Shown: positions 1 through 5,278 of the stretch, piece after piece
How positions within the stretch are numbered: the first letter of the stretch is position 1
Layout of the letters: every line of letters starts with the position of its first letter
Assembly: GCA_947175285.1 (NCBI GenBank)
Contig: CAMWMM010000278.1
Location: forward strand, 1-6,721
Reading direction: 5' to 3'
Length of the DNA: 6,721 bases
DNA from: an uncultured Lachnospiraceae bacterium
Lineage (GTDB): Bacteria > Bacillota_A > Clostridia > Lachnospirales > Lachnospiraceae
Notes under the pieces: model-generated
The model's database searches: none
What the model saw: only the letters and a program-made list of their open reading frames with translations
What the model was told of the DNA's origin: nothing
Made by a program: the position numbers and the translations under genes

Positions 1-642
1 ATATGTTGATTCTAATTCTGGCTTTTGTTCTATATTTGTAATAATTTCATCTATATAATCAAAGTAATTCTTTGTCCTATCATCCAATAATCTTATAAGT
101 TCTGGATATATCCCATATATTTCTTTAAGATATTCATTATCCCTTAACAAAACATCACAATAATATTTTCCTCTCTCAACACTTGTATCGCCTTTAAGCC
201 GTTCATCTTCTTTTGCTATACTTATTTCTAAAACAATTACTCTATAAGCCATGTTTACCAATTTCTTATATAAATTACTCAAAATACTTCTCACAAATAA
301 ATCTATATTTTCAATACTTTTACTATATGATATCTTTTCATACAAACTTGTGAAATAGGAATTAACAATCGGCTCAAAAAAATGAACCCATTGTATTTCC
401 TTTTGAATCAGATTATTAATCTCTTTTAAATATATATTCACATCTCTTGGCGGGAAATATTTGCCGATTATTTTCTCACTTAATGCATCTTCTTCTCTTA
501 ACTTTGCAATTTCTTCAATACTTTCATCAAAAAAAATCGAAATAATTCTTTTAAACTCTTCAACAGAATTTATTTCCGGGAAAAATGATTTCCAAAATTC
601 AATAATTTTATCATAGCTTTCTTTAGAATTAAATTGACTCAT
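1..642 (-). CDS. lanM: LanM-type class II lanthipeptide synthetase, N-terminal part (cut by left window edge)
   Basis: The minus-strand frame is open from an ATG at 642-640 to the window edge (214 codons, no stop). A ribosome binding site reading GAGGTGAT lies about 10 bases upstream. The text matches the N-terminal dehydratase (DUF4135) region of LanM enzymes as I know it: an FFEP segment near residue 88, then a helix with LEISIAKEDERLKG followed by T-S-x-E-R-G-K-Y-Y near residues 130-150, then a YPELIRLLDD segment near residue 179. LanM enzymes phosphorylate and dehydrate Ser/Thr in the precursor and then form (methyl)lanthionine rings through a C-terminal zinc cyclase domain, which lies outside this window. 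It is the second gene after lanA, separated by an attenuator-like hairpin. Codons are extremely A/T-rich (AAA, ATA, TTA, GAA), unlike lanA. Family full length is about 900-1050 residues, so roughly a fifth is visible. Whether the rest is intact cannot be seen. Confidence 0.85.
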   Translation of the reverse strand, partial: MSQFNSKESYDKIIEFWKSFFPEINSVEEFKRIISIFFDESIEEIAKLREEDALSEKIIGKYFPPRDVNIYLKEINNLIQKEIQWVHFFEPIVNSYFTSLYEKISYSKSIENIDLFVRSILSNLYKKLVNMAYRVIVLEISIAKEDERLKGDTSVERGKYYCDVLLRDNEYLKEIYGIYPELIRLLDDRTKNYFDYIDEIITNIEQKPELESTY

Positions 643-663
643 TTTACAATATCACCTCACATG

Positions 664-713
664 AAAAACGCCACAAAGTAGCAGCCATATGAAAGCACTG
701 CTAACTTTGTGGC
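664..713 (-). terminator. Attenuator hairpin between lanA and lanM
   Basis: The arms 670-684 (GCCACAAAGTAGCAG) and 698-713 (CTGCTAACTTTGTGGC) pair over 15 bp with a single bulged A at 703 and a 13-base loop. Read on the minus strand the hairpin is followed one base later by five T residues (668-664), the form of an intrinsic terminator. It starts 38 bases after the lanA stop and ends just before the lanM ribosome binding site. In lanthipeptide operons such partially read-through hairpins let the precursor be made in excess of its modification enzyme. The T tract is short, so partial termination is the likelier role. Confidence 0.8.
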
Positions 714-750: not shown

Positions 751-948
751 TTAGCCGCAAGAAACATTATTGCTGGTGCATTCATAAGAACCTGTGAAAT
801 GCTCGCCACATTTCCCAGCCAATGTCAACTGGATAGCCGTAAAGATACCAGCACCGGACTTGCCTGCCAGATCCTGCTCGCTGATCTCATAGCCCACTGC
901 CATCTTGTCATTTGTCCTGTTCATGGGATTTCTCATTGCCTTGCTCAT
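751..948 (-). CDS. lanA: Class II (LanM-modified) lantibiotic precursor peptide, 65 residues
   Basis: The start is the ATG at 948-946, preceded by AAAGGAG with an 8-base spacer. An upstream in-frame ATG at 981 overlaps this site and is unlikely. The leader has RNPMNRT (residues 6-12) and EISEQDLAGKSGA (21-33), resembling from memory the leaders of the mersacidin/lichenicidin/haloduracin-alpha group, where the peptidase domain of a LanT transporter cuts after Gly-Gly, Gly-Ala or similar. Cleavage after G32-A33 would leave a 32-residue core. The core has three Cys (47, 57, 64) and Ser/Thr at 37, 42, 52, 54, 58, 59 and 63, allowing up to three rings. T52-G-S-Y-E-C57 matches the T-x-S/T-x-E/D-C ring shared by mersacidin-like and lacticin 481-like lantibiotics, which binds lipid II. 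lanM follows directly. No second (beta) peptide is visible. G/C-ending codons contrast with lanM. Activity and exact cleavage site are inference. Confidence 0.85.
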   Translation of the reverse strand: MSKAMRNPMNRTNDKMAVGYEISEQDLAGKSGAGIFTAIQLTLAGKCGEHFTGSYECTSNNVSCG

Positions 949-1017: not shown

Positions 1018-1023
1018 ATAATA
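1018..1023 (-). promoter_or_regulatory. Candidate -10 element of the lanA promoter
   Basis: On the minus strand these bases read TATTAT, about 70 bases before the lanA start codon. No recognisable -35 hexamer lies 16-18 bases upstream (the 17-base spacing gives CAGTTT), which is typical of activator-dependent promoters. The element sits 30 bases from the lower LytTR-like box, the same distance as in the agrD promoter. Confidence 0.5.
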
Positions 1024-1052
1024 CCAAAAATCAATCCATTAAACTGTTGCAT

Positions 1053-1085
1053 GTAATTTTTCCCATACTGCTCGTAATTTTTCCC
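1053..1085 (-). promoter_or_regulatory. Tandem LytTR-type operator upstream of lanA
   Basis: Two identical 12-base direct repeats, GTAATTTTTCCC on the plus strand (GGGAAAAATTAC on the minus strand), occupy 1053-1064 and 1074-1085, start to start 21 bp apart, i.e. two helical turns. Response regulators with a LytTR domain (AgrA, PlnC, ComE) bind paired direct repeats with this period just upstream of the promoters they activate. The same 12-mer recurs upstream of agrD at 2096-2107. The likely ligand is the LytTR regulator encoded at 2620-3363; that assignment is inference. Confidence 0.75.
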
Positions 1086-1099
1086 CTATATTTTTTTAT

Positions 1100-1428
1100 C
1101 TACAGCTTGTCCAATCTTTTCGCTATTTCTTTCAACATATGTAACAAATATTCCTTTTAGTTCTCGCCCCTTCCTCTTAAAATGCAATATATCCGTTCTA
1201 CTTCTGGTATCTCATCCATTTGATCATATAGAAGAAAGATAACGGTATACGGAGAGCATCCGGCAGCCTTATAAAGTTCTCTAATAACGTTGTTCTTTTT
1301 CCACCCTCAATCCGTTTTATAGAGTCCAGTGACAGATCTGCCCATTCTTGAAGCTCTGCCTGTGTTAAATTTTCTTTTTTCCGGTATAATCTCACGTTAT
1401 CCGCAATAATATATCTTATATCCTTCAT
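1100..1428 (-). pseudogene. XRE-family (helix-turn-helix) regulator, broken by a frameshift and a stop codon
   Basis: The start ATG at 1428-1426 follows a GGAG site. The open part (1198-1428) encodes an HTH_3-type DNA-binding domain: NVRLYRKKENLTQAEL (residues 11-26), then a recognition-helix region with SLDSIKRIEGGKR (33-45), then PLSFF. At a run of three T residues (minus strand 1237-1235) the homology jumps one frame. With one more T the text reads PLSFLLYD, then continues QMDEIPEVERIYCILRGRGEN to an in-frame TAA (1159-1157), and beyond it KEYLLHMLKEIAKRLDKL to a natural TAG at 1102-1100. The shifted text after the stop still reads as the C-terminal helix usual for small Clostridial regulators. 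So the ancestral protein was about 109 residues and has been hit at least twice. The 76-residue open product might still fold as an HTH domain. It lies between agrD and lanA and probably once controlled lanA. Confidence 0.8.
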
Positions 1429-1527
1429 TCATCTATTCTCCATTCTGATTTATTTTTAGAAATGAAGAACAAAGTGGAGGACTATGGATACAGACACAAA
1501 CATAAAGCTGCATTTTTCGACATGCAT

Positions 1528-1569
1528 AAAAAAATACATTATGTCAGGACGCATCCTTTCATATGTATT
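1528..1569 (-). terminator. Intrinsic terminator-like hairpin (minus strand)
   Basis: The arms 1533-1543 (AATACATTATG) and 1560-1569 (CATATGTATT) pair over 10 bp with one bulge. Inside them AGGA (1546-1549) pairs with TCCT (1554-1557), making a longer two-part stem. On the minus strand the stem runs into seven T residues (1534-1528). It could stop transcription that has escaped the two hairpins nearer agrD, or end a lost gene. Confidence 0.6.
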
Positions 1570-1669
1570 CTTCTTTTGTTATGATTTTTTATTAAATTGG
1601 GAAATCTTCTTACCCCATATGCCGCTAACATAAAAATATACAATATACTCCTGTCCTGAATTTGCGCAT

Positions 1670-1708
1670 AAAAAAACACGCATGAATTTCAAATGTATAT
1701 CATTCGTG
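1670..1708 (-). terminator. Second terminator-like hairpin (minus strand)
   Basis: CACGCATGA (1677-1685) pairs with TCATTCGTG (1700-1708) with one internal C/T mismatch. The minus-strand reading then enters seven T residues (1676-1670). The layout and the GCATAAAAAAA flank repeat that of the hairpin at 1528-1569, so the two may be related by duplication. Confidence 0.55.
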
Positions 1709-1794
1709 TGTTTTCACATTCTACCGTGTAGATTGTCTACTGTATATTTTTAAGTTCATTACAATGGAAATAAATTGACCGAATTTCTTTTCCA

Positions 1795-1842
1795 AAAATA
1801 CTGCCATATGTATAAGTTTCCTCACGCATATGGCAGTATTTT
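1795..1842. terminator. agrD terminator: 16-bp perfect inverted repeat
   Basis: AAAATACTGCCATATG (1795-1810) and CATATGGCAGTATTTT (1827-1842) are perfect inverted copies around a 16-base loop. The minus-strand 3' arm ends in five T residues, 20 bases past the agrD stop codon, so it is most likely the agrD terminator. The A/T ends make it symmetrical, so it could work in both directions. Confidence 0.75.
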
Positions 1843-1861
1843 CTTCCGCATGTCAGCTTTC

Positions 1862-2008
1862 TTATCGAAAAAGCTTCTTCATTCCTGTCGGCTGCTTGGG
1901 CTGATGGAGGCAATACATACATCTGCTGTCCGCTGCTGCTTTAGCAGAATTGAGTGCCACTTTTCCCAAAATTGTTGCCGCGATATTTTTCTTTTTGTTG
2001 TCTGACAT
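1862..2008 (-). CDS. agrD: AgrD-like cyclic (thio)lactone autoinducing peptide precursor, 48 residues
   Basis: ATG at 2008-2006 follows GGAGGTG (minus strand 2021-2015) with a 6-base spacer; the stop is TAA at 1864-1862. The protein has the three parts of AgrD precursors. Residues 1-27 are a Lys-rich, Ala-rich amphipathic helix (NIAATILGKVALNSAKAAA). A signal segment S28-R-C-M-Y-C-L34 follows, then a charged tail with HQPKQP (35-40) and KK. Firmicute AgrD peptides place a Cys four residues before the cleavage site, followed by a P-(K/E)-x-P motif. Here C30 with L34 fits this register exactly, predicting a C30-L34 thiolactone ring. AgrB (4709-5278) would cut and cyclise it. The gene is divergent from the agr operon, has its own LytTR-like box and a strong terminator. 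A second Cys (C33) inside the predicted ring is unusual. The real N-terminus of the mature signal cannot be read from sequence. Confidence 0.85.
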   Translation of the reverse strand: MSDNKKKNIAATILGKVALNSAKAAADSRCMYCLHQPKQPTGMKKLFR

Positions 2009-2039
2009 ATAATACACCTCCAATTTCATTTTCATTGCC

Positions 2040-2045
2040 AGTATA
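2040..2045 (-). promoter_or_regulatory. Candidate -10 element of the agrD promoter
   Basis: The minus strand reads TATACT here, about 32 bases before the agrD start codon. The sequence 17 bases upstream (AAGGAA) is not a -35 box, again suggesting dependence on an activator. The distance of 30 bases from the lower operator half-site is identical to the lanA promoter. Confidence 0.55.
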
Positions 2046-2074
2046 CCTTATTTTGCAGGCTTTTCCTTTTCAAT

Positions 2075-2107
2075 GTTGAAATTCCGACACAGCATGTAAT
2101 TTTTCCC
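2075..2107 (-). promoter_or_regulatory. LytTR-type operator upstream of agrD
   Basis: A full box, GTAATTTTTCCC, lies at 2096-2107 on the plus strand, identical to both lanA boxes. Its flank CATGTAATTTTTCCC is identical to that of the lanA box at 1053-1064. A degenerate second half-site GTTGAAATTCCG sits exactly 21 bp away at 2075-2086 (6 of 12 positions kept, concentrated at GT and TTCC). The strong site is distal and the weak site promoter-proximal, whereas lanA has two strong sites. This implies autoinduction of the signal by the regulator at 2620-3363 (inference). Confidence 0.7.
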
Positions 2108-2244: not shown

Positions 2245-2642
2245 ATGGTAAAAATCGTATTCGTGAGCTACGAAAGAACATGAACATGTCGCAAGAGGCC
2301 CTTGCAGTAGTAATTCACACTACTCAACAAGCAGTAAGCAGAATGGAAAATCACGCTTATGATATTCCTTCTGAATCGCTCATAGAAATGGCAGACTACT
2401 TTAATGTTACTACTGACTACATACTTGGAATTTCTGATACAAAGCGTGATTATAACGGACAGTACCGCATGAATCAGGAAATGGATAAATGCTATGATAT
2501 TGTCCTCCGCTATCAAAAGTTATCCGAAATCAACCAAAAGACACTCCGCTGCATACTTGAGCGCTTAGAGCAGGCGCAGAGAGAAAGCGAAGAAGCATCT
2601 GCAAAGGAAGTGGATAAAAATGCTGAGAATAGCAATATGTGA
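2245..2642 (+). CDS. XRE-family regulator leading the agr operon; apparent 1-base deletion near the start
   Basis: The frame open from ATG 2280 encodes 120 residues with most of an HTH_3 domain (SQEALA, then TTQQAVSRME, then the second-helix region ending DYILG near residue 50), and then a Glu/Lys/Gln-rich helical tail. The first helix is missing from that start, and ATG 2280 has no clear ribosome binding site. A good site (AGGAAG, 2231-2236) instead serves ATG 2245. From there one extra A in the five-A run at 2250-2254 would give MVKNRIRELRKNMNMSQEAL, an ideal XRE N-terminus and a 132-residue protein. As written, ATG 2245 yields only 12 codons, ending in a TGA that overlaps ATG 2280 as ATGA, so reinitiation could make an N-truncated protein. 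The gene end overlaps the response regulator start by 23 bases. Its target may be the inverted repeat at 2163-2181. It may be a mutant gene or a sequence error. Confidence 0.75.
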
Positions 2643-3363
2643 TGATGATTCAAAATTTACCGGGGAAATCAAAACTTTGGTATTTGAAGAAAGCCGGAAG
2701 TTAGGCATCCGTGTGGAAACCGAAGTATTCTCTGACGGCAAAACCCTTCTGAAAAGCATTCAGAACGGCGAGCATTATCAACTTATATTTATTGACATTG
2801 AAATGGAGCAGGTAGACGGAATAACGGCTGCACGGCACATCCGTGAAATAGACCGGACTGTACTGCTGATTTATGTATCGGGCTATGACAAATATTTAAA
2901 GGAACTGTTTGAAGTGGAGCCATTCCGCTATCTCTCAAAACCTTTAAACCATGCCCAGTTTGCCCGTTATTTTGAGGAATCCTGTATACGCATCAATGAG
3001 GCAGAAGTATTCTATCAGTTTACATTCAACAAGGAAATTCAGAAAGTGCCCGTAAGAGACATCGTTTATTTTGAAAGCAATAACAGAATCGTTTATATCC
3101 ACCTTAAAGACGGATCTGATGAACATTTTTATGGAAAGCTCAACAATGTCGAAAAGGAACTGGAAACAAGCAGGCAATATTTTCTGCGTATACACCAGTC
3201 CTTTTTAGTGAATTACGGCTATGTGAAGAAAATGAACTTTTTCAATATTACTATCAGTTTCATGGGAAAGGAAATGGAATTGAAAATCAGCGAGGATCGG
3301 CAGAAGGAAGTGCGCCAGCAGCTTTGTAAGATTGCAGGCGGAAAGGCGGTCATAGAAGAATGA
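2620..3363 (+). CDS. agrA: LytTR-family response regulator (AgrA type), 247 residues
   Basis: The start ATG at 2620 follows AAGGAAGTG and overlaps the end of the XRE gene, which suggests translational coupling. Residues 1-121 are a receiver domain: acidic cluster D8-D9-D10, phospho-acceptor D59 in FIDIEM, conserved S87 in YVSG, and K107 in LSKP. Residues about 135-240 are a LytTR DNA-binding domain (VPVRDIVYFES, then RIVYIHLKDG, then YFLRIHQSFLVNYGYV). Length and order match AgrA/ComE-type regulators, which bind pairs of direct repeats about 21 bp apart. The gene overlaps the kinase gene by 4 bases (ATGA), so the two are a co-transcribed pair. Its predicted targets here are the boxes upstream of lanA and agrD. 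It is the only regulator in the window with no visible lesion. Assignment to the Agr pathway rests on the agrB and agrD neighbours. Confidence 0.92.
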   Translation: MLRIAICDDDSKFTGEIKTLVFEESRKLGIRVETEVFSDGKTLLKSIQNGEHYQLIFIDIEMEQVDGITAARHIREIDRTVLLIYVSGYDKYLKELFEVEPFRYLSKPLNHAQFARYFEESCIRINEAEVFYQFTFNKEIQKVPVRDIVYFESNNRIVYIHLKDGSDEHFYGKLNNVEKELETSRQYFLRIHQSFLVNYGYVKKMNFFNITISFMGKEMELKISEDRQKEVRQQLCKIAGGKAVIEE

Positions 3364-4670
3364 CTGAATATTTGACGATGATACCCGAACTGCTCCTGTC
3401 GCTGCTCCACCTTCTCATTATACGAAAATATATGAAGGTATTTTGGGGACCGGAGAACAGGAATTTAAAGGGTTACATAGAATGGGGCATATACTATGGC
3501 TTTCTGATCATAAACAATATCAGTTCCGTATTCCCGCCTCAACTGTTATTGTTTGGGAATGTCCTGCTGATTTTTATGATAAGTTCAGCTACCCGCAAAA
3601 GAAGTGTCAAGCAGCGCTGCATATTTTCTATATTGATATGCACGGTATGGATGTTAGTGGAAGTCATTGTCCTGATGATACTAATATCTGTCGGTTTTGA
3701 TTCCAGAACGCTTCAGGATGCCGGGAGTTTCATATCTAAAATATGTATGCTGCTGTTATCAGTTATCATAAGCCACTGCATCAAGGATAACCACTATTCC
3801 GAAATTCCCCTGCTTTATTTTTTGAGCATTCTGCTGATACCAGTCAGCAGCATTTATGTGATGCACCATATATTTCTTATTGCGGCTGCTCATAGCGAGT
3901 ATATGATATTCTCTGCCACAGCGAGTTTCCTGCTGCTGGTTATAAACTATGTTATCTTTGAGGTCTACGACTGGATCAGCCGGAACGCTGAACTGCGTGA
4001 GCAAAACCGTCTGTATGCGCAGCAACTGGAGCTTTGCAGCCAGCAGGCGGAAGAACGTGAGAGCCTCTATCTTGAAATCCGCAGAATCCAGCATGATTTA
4101 AAAAATCATCTTTCCGGACTTCTCGGAATGGTTTAGGCAGGGCAGACCAGCGAGGCAGAGGAATACATCATGCAAATGTTAGATGTCGGCGCCGGAGACC
4201 GTCCGGAGGAAGTTTCCCGCAGCGGTAATATAGTCGTTGATTCCTTAATCAATAACGCATATGCTGCAGCACAGAAAGATAATATACAATTTAATGTCAA
4301 TGTTCTTGTACCCGCATCCCTTCCATTTCAAAGCGGGCATTTAGCCATAGTTCTAGGGAACTTGCTGGAAAATGCACTGGAAGCCTGCCGGGATATTCCG
4401 GACGGGAAAGGATTTATATGCCTTGATATTTCTTATGCCAAAGACATCTTTCAGCTATGCATAAAAAATAACTATCGAACAAAGCGGAAAAGAAATAATA
4501 GCGGACATTATCTAACTACAAAAGGCGATACCATATATCACGGTCTTGGGCTTTCATCCATAAACCATGCCGTCATAAATTATCATGGGCAAATGGATAT
4601 AATAGACAACGACAATATATTTCAGGTCATTGTCGTCATGTATGGTTCATATGCAGAGAAAGCCGGATAA
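3360..4670 (+). pseudogene. agrC: AgrC-type sensor histidine kinase interrupted by an in-frame amber codon
   Basis: The frame opens at ATG 3360, overlapping the agrA stop. Residues 1-258 hold about six hydrophobic segments (roughly 7-22, 43-52, 60-76, 88-111, 123-140, 149-200 containing two), then a linker helix rich in Gln/Glu, then the phospho-acceptor H245 in RRIQHDLKNH. Codon 259 is TAG (4134-4136). The same frame then continues without a break for 177 codons through the GHKL ATPase domain, with the N box (LGNLLENALEA) and the G box (HGLGLSSIN). Total length, 436 codons, is normal for AgrC, so this is one kinase with a point nonsense change. A separate start at ATG 4170 is preceded by AGAGGAA 6 bases away. 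Translation could thus restart 33 bases past the stop and give a free 166-residue ATPase domain. By family knowledge, AgrC senses the peptide at the membrane and phosphorylates AgrA. Function as sequenced is uncertain. Confidence 0.85.
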
Positions 4671-4708: not shown

Positions 4709-5278
4709 ATGGAACATTTAGCAAAAAAATTAGCAGATTATATATATGAAAAAGAAATCATTACCGGAGAACTGGTTGAGATCTATCAGTACGGTTTTCA
4801 ATGCTTTTTGGAGCTGTCTGCGAGTACCATATGCAGCATTATAATAGCCCTGTTTCTTGGTATGCTGCCTGAATGCCTTTTCTTTTTCCTGTTTTTTATC
4901 CCTATGCGCTCCTACGGCGGTGGATTGCATATGAAAACATATTTTGCCTGTTTTATAGGCTCCTGCTTCATACTTACATCTTCTCTGTTGGCAGTAAAAT
5001 ATTTAACGATACCCATTCCGATCTCTTTTGCACTGTATCTGTTTGCTGCCATACTGATTCTAGTCATCGGTCCGGTTGACCATCCAAATCGGGAAGTAGA
5101 TGCACAAGAAAACCGCACATTCATTAAGAGAACTTATTTCACGATGCTTATCAGCTTTTTATTGGCTTTATTTTTCATCTTCACCCAAAACACAAGGTAT
5201 ATGCTTCTACAAGCAATCGTATTTGTTTTTATCTCTGCTACTTCCCTCATCGGACGTCTGATATACAAACAGACTTAA
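4709..5278 (+). CDS. agrB: AgrB-type accessory gene regulator protease, 189 residues
   Basis: The start is ATG 4709, after AAAAGGAG with a 5-base spacer; the longer frame from TTG 4679 has no support. AgrB is an integral membrane cysteine endopeptidase that removes the AgrD tail and forms the thiolactone. The sequence shows the AgrB signature: IPMRSYGGGLHMKTYFAC, with catalytic H74 and C81 seven residues apart, as in staphylococcal AgrB (H77, C84). Several hydrophobic segments (roughly 38-65, 78-97, 101-124, 141-162, 165-184) follow an amphipathic N-terminal part. GPVDHPNRE near residue 125 matches the conserved loop usually written as P-x-x-x-x-N. It is the last gene of the plus-strand operon, 38 bases after the kinase. 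Its substrate, AgrD, is encoded on the opposite strand 2.7 kb away. It ends tail to tail with the next gene, the two stops sharing TTAA. Confidence 0.93.
   Translation: MEHLAKKLADYIYEKEIITGELVEIYQYGFQCFLELSASTICSIIIALFLGMLPECLFFFLFFIPMRSYGGGLHMKTYFACFIGSCFILTSSLLAVKYLTIPIPISFALYLFAAILILVIGPVDHPNREVDAQENRTFIKRTYFTMLISFLLALFFIFTQNTRYMLLQAIVFVFISATSLIGRLIYKQT

What the first reader, a model, noticed from the sequence alone, without database searches (positions are those of the whole stretch)
1018..2107. agrD and lanA share the same LytTR-type promoter architecture: a quorum-sensing-controlled lantibiotic
The 12-mer GTAATTTTTCCC occurs at 1053-1064, 1074-1085 and 2096-2107. In the agrD promoter a degenerate fourth copy lies at 2075-2086. 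Upper box, lower box and candidate -10 (1018-1023 versus 2040-2045) are all offset by exactly 1022 bp between the two promoters, so box period (21 bp) and box-to--10 distance (30 bp) are both conserved. Neither promoter has a good -35. LytTR regulators bind 21-bp-spaced direct repeats, and such a regulator is encoded at 2620-3363. The simplest reading is that a thiolactone peptide signal induces both itself and the lantibiotic precursor.
Basis: partly seen in the sequence, partly recalled or inferred. Interest (0 to 1): 0.88.

Follow-up and report, generated by a model that had tools for sequence, protein, structure and literature searches.

The report
Quorum switch for swappable antimicrobial clusters
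A short paired DNA signal that sits in front of a bacterial communication peptide also sits in front of a lantibiotic here and, in related gut bacteria, in front of several unrelated kinds of antimicrobial-type peptide clusters, which suggests that one signal switches on whichever cluster a strain carries.

Summary
Of four exact 12-mer copies in the 5.6 Mb genome three lie here; the fourth is inside an ORF. Nineteen other genomes carry the LytTR regulator at 60% identity or more. In 14 of 14 loci with this AgrD, the agrD promoter keeps both boxes. Box pairs peak at 21 bp (11; at most 3 elsewhere) and a -10 lies 29 nt downstream. A tandem-box scan of 18 of these genomes gave 18 hits, 14 outside long frames; 11 of the 14 precede lanthipeptide or radical-SAM RiPP genes, 1 an agrD. 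The own genome's only other hit precedes a second lanA. So shared control is supported and widens: one Agr-type circuit seems wired to interchangeable RiPP clusters. Against: binding and induction are untested; the raw count is 18 against 12 for a reversed pattern; here the kinase has an in-frame TAG and an XRE gene is broken, though a second agr copy is intact. Nearest precedents: Fsr/enterocin O16 and the Agr-controlled LanM-like CA_C0082.

The parts
1074..1085 (-). lanA promoter, upstream box GGGAAAAATTAC
   Evidence: exact 12-mer; paired-box family in relatives
1053..1064 (-). lanA promoter, downstream box GGGAAAAATTAC, 21 bp from the first
   Evidence: exact 12-mer
1018..1023 (-). candidate -10 of lanA (TATTAT), 29 nt after the downstream box
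   Evidence: 12 of 18 target promoters have at least 5 of 6 TATAAT matches at offset 28-30
2096..2107 (-). agrD promoter, upstream box GGGAAAAATTAC
   Evidence: kept with at most 2 changes in 14 of 14 loci with this AgrD
2075..2086 (-). agrD promoter, downstream degenerate box CGGAATTTCAAC (6 of 12 to the 12-mer)
   Evidence: unchanged in 14 of 14 loci with this AgrD
2040..2045 (-). candidate -10 of agrD (TATACT)
751..948 (-). lanA, 65-aa precursor, salivaricin M family lantibiotic
   Evidence: NF040663 103 bits, cut-off 60; 38 proteins in the homology search, the window's own included
1..642 (-). lanM, first 214 aa of a class II lanthipeptide synthetase, cut by the contig end
   Evidence: TIGR03897 E 1e-23, 83 bits, below the whole-protein cut-off 304
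1198..1428 (-). XRE-type helix-turn-helix gene, broken relative to 110-aa relatives
   Evidence: HTH_3; tblastn continues in another frame with a stop
1862..2008 (-). agrD, 48-aa autoinducer precursor, core CMYCL before HQPKQP
   Evidence: TIGR04223 36.6 bits, cut-off 19
2280..2642 (+). helix-turn-helix gene ahead of the regulator; no in-frame ATG where most relatives start
   Evidence: HTH_3
2620..3363 (+). LytTR response regulator (AgrA-like), presumed to bind the boxes
   Evidence: PF00072 + PF04397
3360..4136 (+). sensor kinase, N-terminal part up to an in-frame TAG just after the H-box HDLKNH
4170..4670 (+). sensor kinase, C-terminal GHKL ATPase part, same frame
   Evidence: PF14501 E 4.2e-21
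4709..5278 (+). agrB, processing protease of the signal peptide
   Evidence: PF04647 E 3.8e-39

Best explanation
The two promoters belong to one LytTR regulon. The AgrD peptide is cut and cyclised by AgrB (predicted five-residue thiolactone CMYCL), sensed by the GHKL kinase, and the phosphorylated LytTR regulator (2620-3363) binds the 21-bp tandem boxes whose lower half ends 29 nt before the -10, making up for a missing -35. It thereby raises agrD (strong upper box plus a weak but conserved lower box) and lanA (two perfect boxes). In relatives the same circuit drives other RiPP clusters placed beside it or elsewhere in the genome. Shown here: the boxes, spacing, -10 position, their conservation and the genes that follow. 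Inferred: that this regulator is the binder, that it activates, and the peptide structure. In this copy the kinase is interrupted, so function may depend on the second agr copy or be lost.
For: Exact boxes and equal offsets. agrD promoter boxes kept in 14 of 14 loci with this AgrD, 13 distinct sequences. Box pairs in the fetched loci peak at 21 bp: 11 against 0-3 at every other spacing from 13 to 60 (the window's own pair and L010/L011, which gave identical hits, are included). Tandem scan of 18 regulator-bearing genomes: 18 hits in 14 genomes; 14 are in stop-free frames under 150 aa, which I call intergenic; 11 of these lead into RiPP precursor or maturase genes and 1 into a second agrD-agrB. 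Reversed-pattern control in the same genomes: 12 hits, 4 under the same 150-aa limit, 1 with a ribosome site and ATG within 170 bp, against 11 of the 14. Own genome: besides lanA only C485:37813, ahead of a plantaricin C-type lanA (NF000539, 43.7 bits, cut-off 29) and a broken lanM; the control pattern also had one hit there. At least 5 of 6 TATAAT matches at offset 28-30 in 12 of 18 promoters; 0 of 2000 mononucleotide shuffles reach this, largest 7. The layout agrees with published LytTR sites: repeats mostly separated by 12 bp and near the -35 (PMC6193735, passages); AgrA repeats centred near -60 (PMC4227749, passage), while the boxes here would be centred near -58 if transcription starts 7 nt after the -10 (inference).
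Against: No binding or expression data. Loci were chosen by the regulator, and the IUPAC pattern was drawn partly, so only six scan hits are new to it (L029, L068, L069, L070, L073, L079: four RiPP, one agrD, one cupin/aroB-like pair). Raw hit counts are only 18 against 12 control hits. Two of the 14 intergenic hits precede non-RiPP genes (L070; L074, cut by the contig end). L023 and L025 (60% regulators) gave no pair in the relaxed scan; 4 of the 18 genomes had no hit at all. I see no match to the AgrA consensus that I recall (not tested by a tool). The kinase of this copy is interrupted.
Confidence: 0.82

Rival explanations
1. The boxes are bound by one of the helix-turn-helix proteins encoded nearby (1198-1428 or 2280-2642), not by the LytTR regulator.
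For: An XRE gene lies between agrD and the target promoter in the window, L012, L017, L018 and L024 (with the box positions); an HTH gene overlaps or precedes the regulator in 13 of 20 entries by a motif match.
Against: XRE proteins usually bind palindromes (general knowledge); the boxes are direct repeats two helical turns apart. L008, L015 and L020 have the paired box beside agr without an XRE match there; the XRE copy beside agrD is broken in the window and L018 and incomplete in L007. L022 has a tandem box with no HTH motif match; that match was a short pattern, not a homology search.
Confidence: 0.08
2. The shared architecture is real but the regulator represses, so the signal turns the lantibiotic off or the system is a brake.
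For: Nothing in the sequence fixes the sign; S. aureus AgrA also holds down bsaA (PMC4227749, passage).
Against: Boxes lie just upstream of promoters that fail the -35/-10 scan, at a constant 29 nt from the -10, the position of an activator; autoinducer genes with LytTR boxes are usually self-activating (general knowledge).
Confidence: 0.07
3. In this organism the locus is a relic: shared control existed in the ancestor, but kinase, XRE and HTH lesions show that this copy is decaying, and lanA is no longer quorum-controlled.
For: In-frame TAG in the kinase, broken XRE, no clear HTH start; lanM of the second box target is also broken. E. plexicaudatum ASF492 (L019) has a shortened kinase ORF too.
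Against: The lanA pair is the only one with both boxes exact; the ORFs of regulator, agrB, agrD and lanA are open; a second agr copy with a 436-aa kinase is in the same assembly, though the assembly shows 8.7% contamination and the lesions may be assembly errors.
Confidence: 0.35

Closest known systems
Fsr system of Enterococcus faecalis (FsrA-LytTR, enterocin O16)
   Same: Agr-like cyclic peptide system whose LytTR regulator binds sites before its own locus and before an antimicrobial peptide gene (PMC5454873, passages).
   Different: Enterocin O16 is not a lanthipeptide (recalled) and the text seen describes one target set in one species; here the cargo differs between relatives and includes several RiPP classes.
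Agr system of Clostridium acetobutylicum with LanM-like CA_C0082
   Same: Agr controls a LanM-like gene beside it, and the authors note lanthipeptide clusters near agr genes in other clostridia (PMC10301443, abstract and passages).
   Different: CA_C0082 lacks catalytic residues and the other lanthipeptide genes; no shared promoter box is described in the passages seen ('direct repeat' does not occur in the text).
LytTR-regulated bacteriocins of streptococci (HdrR/BrsR LRS, sil)
   Same: LytTR direct repeats, mostly separated by 12 bp, before bacteriocin and regulator promoters (PMC6193735, passages); sil is a peptide-signalled LytTR system (PMC2766830, search listing only).
   Different: Signals of the LRS are stated as unknown; sil uses a linear peptide (recalled); no AgrD.
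agr of Staphylococcus aureus and S. epidermidis
   Same: AgrA binds direct repeats before its own promoters (PMC4227749, passages); AgrB, AgrD, kinase and LytTR regulator (general knowledge).
   Different: Epidermin is controlled at precursor processing (title of Kies 2003 in the reference list of PMC10301443), not by a shared box; here agrD stands alone, divergent from regulator-kinase-agrB.

Membership tests
Agr-type quorum-sensing system | AgrD-type cyclic lactone precursor | tested here: met
   TIGR04223 36.6 bits, cut-off 19
Agr-type quorum-sensing system | AgrB protease | tested here: met
   PF04647 E 3.8e-39
Agr-type quorum-sensing system | LytTR response regulator | tested here: met
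   PF04397 and PF00072 over cut-off; AgrA equivalog NF046049 30.7 bits against a cut-off of 400, so AgrA-like, not AgrA
Agr-type quorum-sensing system | uninterrupted GHKL sensor kinase | tested here: not met
   in-frame TAG at 4134-4136; GHKL domain present in the second part; ORF of 416-436 aa in 17 of 19 other loci examined
Agr-type quorum-sensing system | secreted thiolactone signal | not testable with these tools
   core CMYCL inferred from AgrD sequences
LytTR tandem binding site | direct repeats about two helical turns apart just upstream of a promoter | tested here: met
   21 bp peak, -10 at 29 nt
LytTR tandem binding site | bound by the LytTR regulator | not testable with these tools
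   needs gel shift or footprint
Class II lantibiotic cluster | LanA precursor of a known lantibiotic family | tested here: met
   NF040663 103 bits, cut-off 60
Class II lantibiotic cluster | complete LanM synthetase and exporter | tested here: inconclusive
   LanM cut by the contig end, 83 bits against cut-off 304; no exporter among the ten ORFs scanned

The most novel reading that the evidence does not exclude
A common language for private weapons: gut Lachnospiraceae and kin share one nearly invariant Agr signal (CMYCL ring in 57 of 60 AgrD relatives found) and one promoter address, while the antimicrobial-type cluster plugged into that address differs from species to species (class II and class I-like lanthipeptides, RumMC-type sactipeptides, CcpM-like radical-SAM peptides). 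One species' signal would then arm its neighbours' different bacteriocins.
Probability: 0.4. Interest if true: 0.82.

Novelty: new variant of a known kind. Interest (0 to 1): 0.62.

Why it matters
It gives a sequence handle, one paired box with a fixed -10 distance, to find which antimicrobial-type peptide clusters in gut Lachnospiraceae may be silent until a defined cyclic peptide accumulates. A single synthetic peptide might then switch on several uncharacterised RiPPs in named strains such as Lachnospiraceae bacterium A4 and 3-1 or Roseburia faecis M72 (L013, L010, L012), and the question whether different species share one signal becomes testable.

Tried and rejected
Family-wide motif scan: 397 genomes at up to 1 mismatch gave 13 genomes with a hit (G000 included) against 7 control hits with the reversed pattern. 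Of the 12 loci outside G000, 8 lie in open frames of 298 aa or more; the others are L063 (183), L058 (118), L061 (96) and L059 (66, G113, with a TATGAT at 29 nt, counted by eye from the output; the genome has a 36% identical LytTR). So the motif is not a general Lachnospiraceae promoter. A Fisher test (11 of 18 against 3 of 396) is flattered by the pattern having been drawn from part of the 18 and by my hand-set 150-aa limit; I do not lean on it.

Phage or plasmid carriage: no phage match for the agrD stretch, no viral-contig relative of the regulator, plasmid relatives only below 60% identity. Cargo against regulator tree (16 rows): labels are not clustered (10 changes, shuffled mean 9.2, 200 of 200 shuffles as low), but 8 of 13 inner branches are unresolved, so it shows only that cargo does not visibly follow the regulator. 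Contig C228 and the first 6 kb of C143, which hold other lanM genes of the same genome, gave no paired box. The fourth exact 12-mer (C417) was rejected as regulatory because it lies inside a 116-aa ORF. Papers: eight searches; among the titles and abstract openings listed I saw none on a LytTR box shared across RiPP classes, but lists were capped at 10-20 of up to 4,773 papers. Six papers were opened by passages only (PMC10301443, PMC13239113, PMC11352710, PMC6193735, PMC4227749, PMC5454873); none was read whole. PMC11352710 notes cyclic lactone autoinducers near a thiopeptide cluster in a mouse Lachnospiraceae and proposes quorum control, without a promoter box in the passages seen.

Full report
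What was checked. The window is nearly the whole of a 6743-bp contig (C213) of a 5.6 Mb assembly, 97.9% complete, 8.7% contaminated. The 12-mer GTAATTTTTCCC is exact at the three places named, and upper box, lower box and -10 of the lanA and agrD promoters are each offset by 1022 bp. In the whole genome there are four exact copies, three of them here; the fourth is inside an ORF. Of 1000 dinucleotide shuffles of the window, one had any 12-mer three times and none had one with a pair at 20-22 bp. The second agrD box matches the 12-mer at 6 of 12 letters only.

Genes. lanA 751-948(-) is a salivaricin M family lantibiotic; lanM begins at 642(-) and is cut by the contig end; agrD 1862-2008(-); LytTR regulator 2620-3363(+); kinase from 3360(+), GHKL domain in its second part; agrB 4709-5278(+). 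The kinase frame holds a TAG at 4134-4136, directly after the H-box HDLKNH. In one search an ORF of 416-436 aa follows the regulator in 17 of 19 other loci examined; the exceptions are L019 (216 aa) and L021 (21 aa).

Conservation. A scan of one genome per species gave 22 loci with a relative of the regulator: 14 at 85-94% identity, L020 at 72%, L021 at 67%, L022, L023 and L025 at 60%, and L026-L028 at 27-35%. Of 20 loci searched (window and L007-L025), 14 carry an AgrD with CMYCLHQPKQP, and all 14 have TCGGAATTTCAACAT, whose box starts 21 bp after a box that reads GGGAAAAATTAC with at most two changes (13 distinct sequences). I anchored the alignment on the second box, so its invariance is a count of 14 of 14, not an independent column score. 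Most columns upstream of the first box vary; part of the spacer is conserved too.

Spacing. With the window's 12-mer alone (up to 3 mismatches a box, 4 a pair), same-strand pairs in the fetched loci fall at 21 bp 11 times and at any other spacing from 13 to 60 bp at most 3 times. L010 and L011 gave identical hits, so ten are distinct.

What the paired boxes precede. A tandem pattern was run over 18 genomes that hold these loci (L011 and L026-L028 left out): 18 hits in 14 genomes; 4 genomes had none. Four hits lie in open frames of 181-598 aa (L076, L080, L081, L082); 14 lie in stop-free frames under 150 aa, which I call intergenic. Downstream of the 14: lacticin 481-type lanA with lanM (L078/L107; L071/L101, whose precursor scores below the family cut-off, 27.6 against 46, while its LanM is over cut-off); a Cys-rich 78-aa peptide of no named family with a 1060-aa protein (TIGR03891 over cut-off) and a LanC-like one (weak match), which I read as class I lanthipeptide-like (L065/L095); RumMC-type radical-SAM proteins (L067/L097, over the RumMC cut-off; L069/L099 and L073/L103, below it; L072/L102, L075/L105 and L077/L106, unscanned, by a shared DTGTGKV/DRGTNKV-type stretch and ORF order); small peptides of no named family with CcpM-like radical-SAM proteins below cut-off (L066/L096, L068/L098); a second agrD-agrB (L079/L108); a cupin-like and aroB-like pair (L070/L100); and a dehydrogenase-like ORF, unscanned and cut by the contig end (L074/L104). 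That is 11 RiPP, 1 agr, 2 other. The ORFs of about 600 and 400 aa beside the RumMC-type genes look like ABC transporters and M16-type peptidases by eye; two of the latter matched no NCBIfam model. The pattern was drawn partly, so the fair new hits are L029, L068, L069, L070, L073 and L079: four RiPP, one agr, one other.

Controls. The reversed pattern gave 12 hits in the same genomes; 4 pass the same 150-aa limit (against 14 of 18), and 1 has a ribosome site plus ATG within 170 bp (against 11 of the 14). Raw counts, 18 against 12, do not separate by themselves. In 397 family genomes not chosen by the regulator the motif is near its control level (13 genomes against 7 control hits).

Own genome. 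At up to 2 mismatches there are two hits and one control hit: lanA of the window and C485:37813-37845, which stands 90 bp before a 63-aa plantaricin C-type precursor followed by lanM pieces with stops. C228 and the first 6 kb of C143, with other lanM genes, gave no pair. So the box marks particular RiPP clusters, not all.

Promoter geometry. In 18 target promoters (14 intergenic scan hits, C485, window lanA, L022, L021) the mean TATAAT match is highest at offset 29 (4.28 of 6; next 3.39), and 12 of 18 have at least 5 of 6 at 28-30; shuffling the downstream letters gives a mean of 1.6 and a maximum of 7 in 2000 trials. No -35/-10 pair passes the scan at lanA or agrD. This is the layout of an activator-dependent promoter and agrees with published LytTR sites: repeats mostly separated by 12 bp and about 10 bp before the -35 (PMC6193735, passages), or centred near -60 for AgrA (PMC4227749, passage); here the centre would be near -58.

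Signal. Of 60 AgrD relatives in the protein collection, 57 have CMYCL before HQPKQP, while leader and tail positions vary; the rest are CMYIF, CMFCL and one truncated. In the loci the core is kept through synonymous codon changes. The search draws candidates by shared 5-residue words, which favours a conserved core. More distant regulators go with other rings (L020 CMYIY, L023 CVYLF).

Reading. One Agr-type circuit with its own agrD box is joined by the same box to whichever RiPP cluster the genome holds. In the window, L008, L012, L015, L017, L018, L020 and L024 the target box lies within about 1.5 kb of the agrD box or regulator; in L010 and L013 8-9.5 kb away; in the genome of L019 about 39 kb away, and in those of L007, L009 and L014 on a contig of another length. 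The regulator tree does not sort by cargo, but 8 of its 13 inner branches are unresolved.

Limits. Regulator binding, sign of control and peptide chemistry are inferred. This copy has three lesions or assembly faults (kinase TAG, broken XRE, HTH without clear start); a 90% identical regulator with a 436-aa kinase ORF is on contig C89, which may be a second copy or a mixed strain.

Noticed in passing
window 4134-4136: In-frame TAG splits the sensor kinase between the H-box and the ATPase domain; 17 of 19 other loci examined have a 416-436-aa ORF there.
   Followed up: partly
window 1198-1428 (-) and 2280-2642 (+): The XRE gene loses frame against 110-aa relatives, and the HTH gene ahead of the regulator has no in-frame ATG where most relatives start; L015 also lacks it.
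   Followed up: partly
L042 (G000 contig C89): Second agr locus, regulator 90% identical, kinase ORF 436 aa, agrD box with one extra A.
   Followed up: partly
L037 (G000 contig C485) 4937-8820: Box-bearing plantaricin C-type lanA is open, but its lanM is broken and a transposase-like ORF (7812-8309, -, unscanned) lies between the pieces.
   Followed up: no
L007, L008, L012, L015, L016: A second AgrD type in the same regions (for example PPICWGITHQPKRPKR), with another predicted ring.
   Followed up: no
window 669-685 (-): Terminator-like stem-loop with a T run between lanA and lanM, a possible attenuator (2 found in the region, 0.8 expected).
   Followed up: no
L059 (G113 contig C116) 46-78: Box pair outside a long frame, TATGAT at 29 nt, before a lipoprotein-like ORF, found by motif alone; the genome has a 36% identical LytTR.
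   Followed up: partly
L079/L108 (G407 contig C18): A box pair precedes another agrD (predicted ring CCCFY) and agrB-like ORF, so one LytTR circuit may feed a second.
   Followed up: no
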